Origin: Meghimatium bilineatum
Taxonomy: Eukaryota > Mollusca > Gastropoda > Stylommatophora > Philomycidae
DNA: 64,000 nt
Assembly (NCBI GenBank): GCA_034231615.1
Contig: CM067310.1
Span: 6,450,010 to 6,514,009, forward strand
Reading direction: 5' to 3'
The position numbers and the translations under genes are program-made. Below, piece by piece: positions 60,847 through 61,378 of this stretch. Numbering within the stretch: position 1 is the stretch's first letter; each line of letters begins with the position of its first letter. Below the pieces are notes generated by a model, which worked only from the letters and a program-made list of their open reading frames with translations, searched no databases and had not been told where the DNA came from.

Positions 60847-61378
60847 TAGTAAAGCAAAATGAGTTAAACAGGTTACTAAAACACTTACCTTGCCTATTAA
60901 TAAAAATATATTTAAAAAAGTATATATAAAAAAACATACAATAAAACTAAACAGGACAATTCTCCACGTATCGGCTCAAATTGAACCTTTTTCAAGAGAC
61001 AAACAACAGAAAACGACAAAATAAAAAACAAAATAGATGACTATATTTCATAGTCTATATAATTTAATAGATAGAAATATAATATAATATAATATGATAT
61101 GATATGATATGATATGATATGATATGATATGATATGATATAATATAATATAATATAATATAATATAATATAATATAATATAAATATAGTCATCTATTTTG
61201 TTTTTTATTTTGTCGTTTTCTGTTGTCTCTTGAAAAAGGTTCAATTTGAGCCGATACGTGGAGAATTGTCCTGTTTAGTTTTATTGTATGTTTTTTTATA
61301 TATACTTTTTAAAATATATTTTTATCAATAGGCAAGGTAAGTGTTTTAGTAACCTGTTTAACTCATTTTGCTTTACTA
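60847..61378. repeat. Large inverted repeat with Penelope-like motif in each arm
   Basis: Left arm 60847-61049 and right arm 61181-61378 are almost perfect reverse complements over about 200 bp. Each arm holds GAAAAAGGTTCAATTTGAGC followed by CGATACGTGG (plus strand in the right arm), a form of the AAGGTCCAATTTGGACC-GAAAC motif known at Penelope-like ends. The centre is (TATGA)n/(TATAA)n. Confidence 0.92.
61080..61181. repeat. (TATAA)n and (TATGA)n microsatellite
   Basis: Pentamer runs form the centre of the inverted repeat. Confidence 0.95.

What the first reader, a model, noticed from the sequence alone, without database searches (positions are those of the whole stretch)
60847..61378. Near-perfect 200-bp inverted repeat with Penelope-like ends
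Arms are about 98 percent complementary, so the structure is young. Each has a motif of the AAGGTTCAATTTGAGCC-GATACGTGG type, close to the AAGG-stem-GAAAC ends of Penelope-like elements, which are known to carry hammerhead ribozymes. It lies between SINE-B copies in opposite orientations. It may be two element ends joined head to head around a pentamer array.
Basis: partly seen in the sequence, partly recalled or inferred. Interest (0 to 1): 0.7.

Follow-up and report, generated by a model that had tools for sequence, protein, structure and literature searches.

The report
Palindromic Penelope retrotransposon fragment
This young inverted repeat is a non-coding scrap of a Penelope-type jumping gene, two copies of its tail end fused back to back, and comparing it with its sister copies suggests how such elements stitch themselves into DNA.

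Summary
The inverted repeat is real (longest exact stretch 88 bp; maximum 20 in 200 shuffles), but the insert is larger than reported. It spans 60775-61378, flanked by a 12-bp target duplication (60763-60774 / 61379-61390). Its left end carries a 69-bp extension missing from the right end. Sister copies in the same genome show that the arms are the 3' end of a Penelope-like element (PLE): sense-strand order is reverse transcriptase, GIY-YIG endonuclease, 3'UTR, arm, "tail". The ribozyme part is weaker: the hammerhead layout is there, but its core is altered and Rfam finds no hammerhead. Sampled head-to-head copies follow a strong rule, one end with the tail and one without: 23 of 23 pairs in one sample, 22 of 23 in a second (the exception lacks a duplication). 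Of these 45 mixed pairs, 44 have an exact duplication of 9-16 bp; L042's is imperfect. With published data on two RT start sites (PMC11167929), this fits both cut strands being extended, each from a different start site, and the cDNAs joined in the middle.

The parts
60763..60774 (.). left target-site duplication CATGTTGAAGGA
   Evidence: 12 bp identical to 61379-61390, abutting the insert
60775..61378 (.). whole insert (604 bp), a head-to-head dimer of truncated PLE 3' ends
   Evidence: target duplication plus homology to sister copies
60778..60846 (-). 'tail' extension, present at this end only (tail-bearing or 'A' end; sense strand is -)
   Evidence: first 69 bases of a 274-bp match at 98.2% to copy L024; shared by most sister copies shown
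60847..61048 (-). left arm = PLE 3'-terminal repeat (pLTR) in - orientation
   Evidence: 96-100% to the 48 scored matches in the same genome
61049..61180 (.). junction filler, mostly a TATAA/TATGA pentamer array, where the two copies meet
   Evidence: the 21 other rows printed continue differently here
61181..61378 (+). right arm = same pLTR in + orientation, ending at ...CTTTACTA (tail-less or 'B' end)
60960..61000 (-). hammerhead-like motif with altered core, left arm
   Evidence: fold and motif; core variants
61225..61265 (+). hammerhead-like motif with altered core, right arm
61337..61342 (+). possible 5' splice site GTAAGT (AAG|GTAAGTG); a possible 3' site TTCATTAG|G lies in the tail, so an intron would span the arm/tail boundary
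   Evidence: read from sequence; GGTAAGTG is kept in 54 of 55 arms; splicing not tested
61379..61390 (.). right target-site duplication CATGTTGAAGGA

Best explanation
It is a short, non-coding insertion of a high-copy Penelope-like retrotransposon, made of two copies of the element's 3' end in head-to-head orientation. Shown: the insert has a 12-bp target duplication; both halves are the same 3'-terminal sequence; one half starts at the end of the tail and the other about 69 bases inside it; the junction between the halves differs in each of the 23 pairs of the first sample; the two arms of one insert are on the whole more alike than arms of different inserts. Inferred: the element's GIY-YIG endonuclease makes a cut staggered by about 13 bp, leaving a 3' OH on each strand. 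Each 3' OH primes reverse transcription of element RNA, one at the outer start site (tail kept), the other at the inner start site (tail absent). Both cDNAs run towards the RNA 5' end, stop early, and are joined in the middle, here with a pentamer filler. Extension of both strands, and two start sites bounding the tail, have been shown in vitro for the Anolis PLE (PMC11167929). The use of one site per strand is my inference from the genomic counts.
For: Family size and youth: 48 scored matches at 96-100%, from 1254 first-look candidates of which 40 were scored. Linkage to PLE genes: RT/endonuclease frame upstream of 3'UTR and arm in L039/L050; GIY-YIG over cut-off in L025 and L026. End pairing: first sample of 39 loci (window included), 23 of 23 convergent pairs are tail/no-tail; second sample of 35 tail-bearing loci, 22 of 23 pairs with two terminal ends; at even odds 23 of 23 has probability 1.2e-7 and 22 or more of 23 has 2.9e-6. 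Exact target duplication of 9-16 bp in 22 of 23 own flanks against at most 8 in 506 swapped flanks, and of 10-15 bp in all 22 mixed pairs of the second sample (no swapped control was run there). Single-ended copies that begin at the tail and have their own duplication: L022, L024, L035, L041 (its second copy 571 bases on), L067, L072, so the tail end is a start point. Both halves reach into the 3'UTR in opposite directions, e.g. L025, L037, L038. Arms within one insert: summed distance 44 against a mean of 76 and minimum 59 in 5000 re-pairings of 13 inserts. Mechanism precedent: PMC11167929.
Against: RT identity rests on reading motifs: RVT_1 is below its cut-off (13.1-14.4 against 29.6 bits), P0003 has no Pfam hit, and no related solved structure was found. 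No intact or 5'-complete element was seen. L056 is a tail/tail palindrome, without a duplication. L031, L064, L079 and L083 pair a tail end with an internal end, L031 and L083 with duplications of 10 and 12. PMC11167929 saw no difference in start site between strands in vitro. Five of the 35 second-sample loci were too long to resolve, and a no-tail/no-tail pair could not have been found in that sample. Single-ended tail copies L026, L027, L032, L034, L043, L082 and L084, and tail-less copies L011, L012, L013 and L021b, show no duplication of 9 or more in the stretch searched. In one search an arm's own partner was its closest or equal-closest arm in only 6 of 26 cases.
Confidence: 0.85

Rival explanations
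1. Snap-back copying: one cDNA folds back and primes its own second strand, giving a palindrome (self-priming, on an antisense template, was proposed for rotifer Penelope, PMC3846280).
For: Several junctions are nearly symmetric, e.g. L003, L028, L046 and the window. Arms of one insert are more alike than random pairs.
Against: A folded-back copy should repeat the tail at both ends, but 45 of 46 pairs have it at one end only. Many junctions are strongly asymmetric, e.g. L010, L023, L036, L044. The antisense-template variant was not modelled in detail.
Confidence: 0.07
2. A master element with built-in inverted ends (tail at its 5' end, none at its 3' end) is copied whole, and the short palindromes are internal deletions of it.
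For: It would give tail/no-tail ends automatically. L021 has tail-arm, endonuclease, 3'UTR and inverted arm in one insert.
Against: Copies that start at the tail and are truncated at the other end, with their own duplication, exist (L022, L024, L035, L067, L072); under this model the tail is the RNA 5' end and such copies should be rare. In several inserts both halves carry the 3'UTR inverted, and no two of the 23 pairs share both inner end positions.
Confidence: 0.06
3. A MITE or fold-back DNA transposon with long terminal inverted repeats and a TA target.
For: The TA next to GTAAAGC on both sides and the AT-rich centre look like one at first sight.
Against: Duplications are 9-16 bp; one end carries a 69-bp extension; the same ends are linked to an RT-like frame and GIY-YIG.
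Confidence: 0.01
4. Two independent insertions that happened to land head to head.
For: None beyond the anatomy.
Against: A duplication flanks the whole insert here and in 43 sister inserts, with an imperfect one in a 44th, L042.
Confidence: 0.01

Closest known systems
Endonuclease-containing Penelope elements of Adineta vaga, e.g. Pen2a_Av (PMC3846280; passages read)
   Same: pseudo-LTRs in head-to-head inverted arrangement, an optional tail on one of the inverted pLTRs, target duplications of 8-10 bp, RT plus GIY-YIG
   Different: Tail 69 bp here against 31 bp; duplication mostly 12-14 bp; here 38 of the 74 sampled loci are mixed-end palindromes under 1 kb (counted), in a family with over a thousand first-look candidates
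PAc, Poseidon of Anolis carolinensis (PMC11167929; parts 1-3 of 4 of the text read)
   Same: Two adjacent RT start sites bounding a tail; both DNA strands cut and extended; AT-rich target
   Different: PAc has a working, protein-assisted hammerhead; here the core is altered. PAc showed no difference in start site between strands; here genomic pairs are nearly always one of each
Minimal type I hammerheads of PLEs (described in PMC7761336; passages read)
   Same: A short motif in the terminal repeat, without a proper helix III
   Different: CUGANGA becomes UUGAAAA, GAAA becomes GAUA, the cleavage triplet GUC becomes GUG (canonical letters recalled); self-cleavage not expected

Membership tests
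Penelope-like element (PLE) | GIY-YIG endonuclease at the C-terminus | tested here: met
   Pfam PF01541 25.1 and 23.9 bits against cut-off 22.6 in L025 and L026. Other pieces did worse: 18.2 bits in P0001 and no hit in the L021 C-terminal piece, none in P0002 or the read-through
Penelope-like element (PLE) | Telomerase-like reverse transcriptase in the same frame | tested here: inconclusive
   RVT_1 only 13.1-14.4 bits, cut-off 29.6, and none in P0003; the YIDD box and other motifs are read by eye, the motif names from recall; structure prediction was never accepted
Penelope-like element (PLE) | Arm is the element's terminal repeat, linked to the coding region | tested here: met
   L039/L050, L021, L025, L026
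Penelope-like element (PLE) | Inverted pLTR with tail on one side and target duplication | tested here: met
Penelope-like element (PLE) | Tandem arrangement of pLTR-ORF-pLTR | tested here: inconclusive
   No clear direct tandem in the matches; no 5'-complete copy seen
Penelope-like element (PLE) | Placement inside the PLE clade of an RT tree | not tested
   No reference PLE proteins at hand
PLE hammerhead ribozyme (common in PLEs, not defining) | Conserved catalytic core CUGANGA...GAAA and GUH cleavage site | tested here: not met
   45 of 55 arms have UUGAAAA/GAUA/GUG exactly; of the other ten, nine are variants of the same altered core and the tenth is cut off in the print; no canonical core in any arm by pattern; no Rfam hammerhead at E up to 10
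MITE / fold-back DNA transposon | Symmetric terminal inverted repeats with a short fixed duplication | tested here: not met
   Asymmetric ends and 9-16 bp duplications

The most novel reading that the evidence does not exclude
PLE integration is an obligately asymmetric two-ended reaction. Both strands of a cut staggered by about 13 bp are primed, and a coordinated complex forces one strand to start at the outer RT site and the other at the inner site, on RNA from the same source, so that every proper two-ended insert carries exactly one tail.
Probability: 0.55. Interest if true: 0.75.

Novelty: new member of a known kind. Interest (0 to 1): 0.52.

Why it matters
How Penelope-like elements integrate, and why they leave inverted ends with a single tail, is still largely open. 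This genome holds a large, young set of short two-ended inserts with clear target duplications. It turns the question into a count: do paired ends always use different start sites? In the two samples here the answer is nearly always yes. It also shows a family that spread without a canonical hammerhead core in its terminal repeat, in line with the in vitro finding that ribozyme mutants still insert (PMC11167929).

Tried and rejected
A TA-flanked MITE was my first reading; the left extension shared by sister copies ended it. Rfam on the window, Rfam at E 10 on the locus and an own-genome Hammerhead_1 search gave no hammerhead; the last is uninformative because its control genomes were silent too. 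A viral-contig pattern scan found nothing. Retrozymes (passages of PMC7229834) were set aside because no hammerhead was found. The hammerhead-like motif changes less than the rest of the arm (0.0123 against 0.0323 per site), but 40 of 169 windows of that length are as low, so I claim no constraint. The RNA fold of arm plus tail is better than shuffles in the window (z -2.86, 1 of 200 shuffles as good), but a decayed copy does not show it (z -1.06): a hint only. An empty site was not found: the joined flanks matched repeats on either side but none across the junction. In one search my script mislabelled L071 and L074; reading them shows both are tail/no-tail pairs (L074's duplication is A-rich). 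The short matches at E964-997 in L075, L076, L077 and L082 are simple AT sequence and were ignored. Dropped before counting: re-fetched duplicates of the same loci. Left out of the pair count: L031, whose second end is internal; an isolated arm in L021 (4644-4867); an older copy in L026 (2734-3103). L012 and L013 share flanks and are probably one insertion, duplicated.

Full report
Observation. The inverted repeat is as described. Arms 60847-61048 and 61181-61378 differ by 2 substitutions and one 4-base indel, and the longest exact stretch of 88 bases compares with at most 20 in 200 dinucleotide shuffles. The centre is a TATAA/TATGA array. BLAST found no second copy in the window.

Genome context. 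The window lies in a 1.61-Gb genome of 32 contigs. A search with the left arm gave 1254 first-look candidates; 40 were scored and gave 48 match rows at 96-100% identity. These rows lie in 39 distinct loci, the window among them; all were fetched (longer versions of some) and typed.

The real insert. In many sister copies the sequence left of the arm is the same 69 bases (ATATAAATAACC...GAACAAA), so the unit begins before 60847. The flanks then show a target duplication: CATGTTGAAGGA at 60763-60774 and 61379-61390 here, and exact duplications of 9-16 bp in 22 of 23 two-ended inserts, against at most 8 in 506 swapped flank pairs. The 23rd, L042, has 8 exact bases and more with one mismatch by eye. 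The duplications are 70% A+T against 59% in the flanks (22 inserts). The insert here is 60775-61378, with three bases (CAA) between duplication and tail.

What the arm is. Following the arm inward in longer copies leads through about 1.2-1.3 kb of apparently non-coding sequence to the stop codon of a GIY-YIG endonuclease, on the strand that reads towards the arm: L021, L025, L026, L037, L039. Pfam's GIY-YIG model passes its cut-off in L025 (25.1 bits) and L026 (23.9; cut-off 22.6), but not in P0001 (18.2) or the L021 C-terminal piece, nor in P0002 or the read-through. In L039/L050 the endonuclease is preceded by an RT-like sequence with a YIDD box, broken by a frame change and apparently 5'-truncated. 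Pfam's general RT model scores it only 13.1-14.4 bits (cut-off 29.6). RT plus GIY-YIG in one frame is how canonical PLEs are described in PMC11167929. So I read the arm as the 3' terminal repeat of a Penelope-like element and the 69 bases as its tail.

End pairing. Call the tail-bearing end A and the tail-less end B. In the first sample of 39 loci, 23 of 23 convergent pairs are A/B, 0 A/A and 0 B/B; there are also 9 A-only, 6 B-only (L012 and L013 share flanks) and one A with an internal second end (L031). Pair sizes run from 284 to 2771 bp, and no two pairs share both inner end positions. A second sample was taken with the tail and arm start (892 candidates, 40 scored, 35 new loci fetched at 1.1 kb), blind to the far end. 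It gave 22 A/B, all with duplications of 10-15 bp; 1 A/A (L056, no duplication); 3 A with an internal second end (L083 with a 12-bp duplication, L079 and L064 without); 4 A-only (L067 and L072 with duplications of 12 and 9, L082 and L084 without); and 5 too long to resolve (L058, L068, L075, L076, L077). Together: 45 A/B, 1 A/A, 0 B/B; B/B could only have been seen in the first sample. At even odds, 23 of 23 has a probability of 1.2e-7 and 22 or more of 23 of 2.9e-6. Both samples are best-scoring copies, so they are young and not random.

Source of the two halves. For 13 inserts with both arms near full length, the arms of one insert are closer (sum of differences 44) than under 5000 re-pairings (mean 76, minimum 59), though a given partner is the closest or equal-closest arm in only 6 of 26 cases. 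The two halves probably come from the same or sister RNA.

Mechanism. Published in vitro work on the Anolis PLE shows cutting and extension of both strands, internal start of reverse transcription at two adjacent sites, and a tail equal to the sequence between them (PMC11167929, parts 1-3 of 4 read). Rotifer elements show head-to-head inverted pLTRs, duplications of 8-10 bp and a tail on one of the inverted pLTRs (PMC3846280, passages). The counts here fit one scheme: a cut staggered by about 13 bp, two 3' ends, each priming at a different start site, and cDNAs joined where they stop. A-only copies truncated at the other end, with their own duplication, show that A is a start point and not merely an RNA 5' end. 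A folded-back cDNA would repeat the tail at both ends, which was seen once in 46 pairs. In vitro no strand difference in start site was reported, so one site per strand is an inference from genomic inserts. The one-tail arrangement itself is described in PMC3846280; I did not see it stated as a counted rule in the listings of searches, of which I read only the papers named here, in part.

Hammerhead. On the sense strand the motif folds as stem I (5 bp), 7 bases, stem II (6 bp), 7 bases, stem I, the layout of a minimal PLE hammerhead. The core is altered: 45 of 55 arms have UUGAAAA, GAUA and GUG exactly, and nine of the other ten print as variants of the same altered core. In hammerhead numbering (recalled) this is C3U, G8A, A14U and G at the cleavage position. 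Self-cleavage is unlikely but was not tested. A canonical-looking motif, CTGATGA...GAAACGTC, occurs in L040 outside the arms.

Verdict. A new member of a known kind. The wider interest lies in the near-strict one-tail rule.

Noticed in passing
44333-44686 (-) and 7480-7857 (-): A cytochrome b5-like domain (Pfam 51.2 bits, over cut-off) and a fatty-acid-hydroxylase-like exon (24.7 bits, below cut-off 31), same strand; perhaps exons of one fatty acid 2-hydroxylase gene with long introns.
   Followed up: partly
9150-9827 (-) and 5634-6083 (+): LINE-like remnants: a DUF6451 match (32.6 bits, over cut-off) and a weak RNase H match (19.6, below cut-off).
   Followed up: partly
L040, minus strand near 3080: A canonical-looking minimal hammerhead core CTGATGAAGG...GAAACGTC, perhaps from another PLE family in the same genome.
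   Followed up: no
inner end positions: Inner ends of the copies cluster near E270-310 and E430-453 and may mark RNA 5' ends. Ends below about 274 are under-sampled by how the first sample was chosen.
   Followed up: no
61337-61342 and the tail 60778-60846: Splice-donor-like GTAAGT in the arm (GGTAAGTG kept in 54 of 55 arms) and an acceptor-like TTCATTAG in the tail: a possible intron of about 54 nt across the inner start site.
   Followed up: no
L015/L049, beyond the insert: A stretch resembling the arm's motif (CTTGATAAAGGTCCCAATTGGGCAGACATGTTG on one strand), perhaps a related, older PLE family (read by eye).
   Followed up: no
60636-60772, 61387-61586, and 12176-12360, 35398-35597, 42724-42911, 48455-48640: Old SINE-like repeat with several copies in the window at 63-75% identity; two inverted copies flank the insertion site.
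   Followed up: partly
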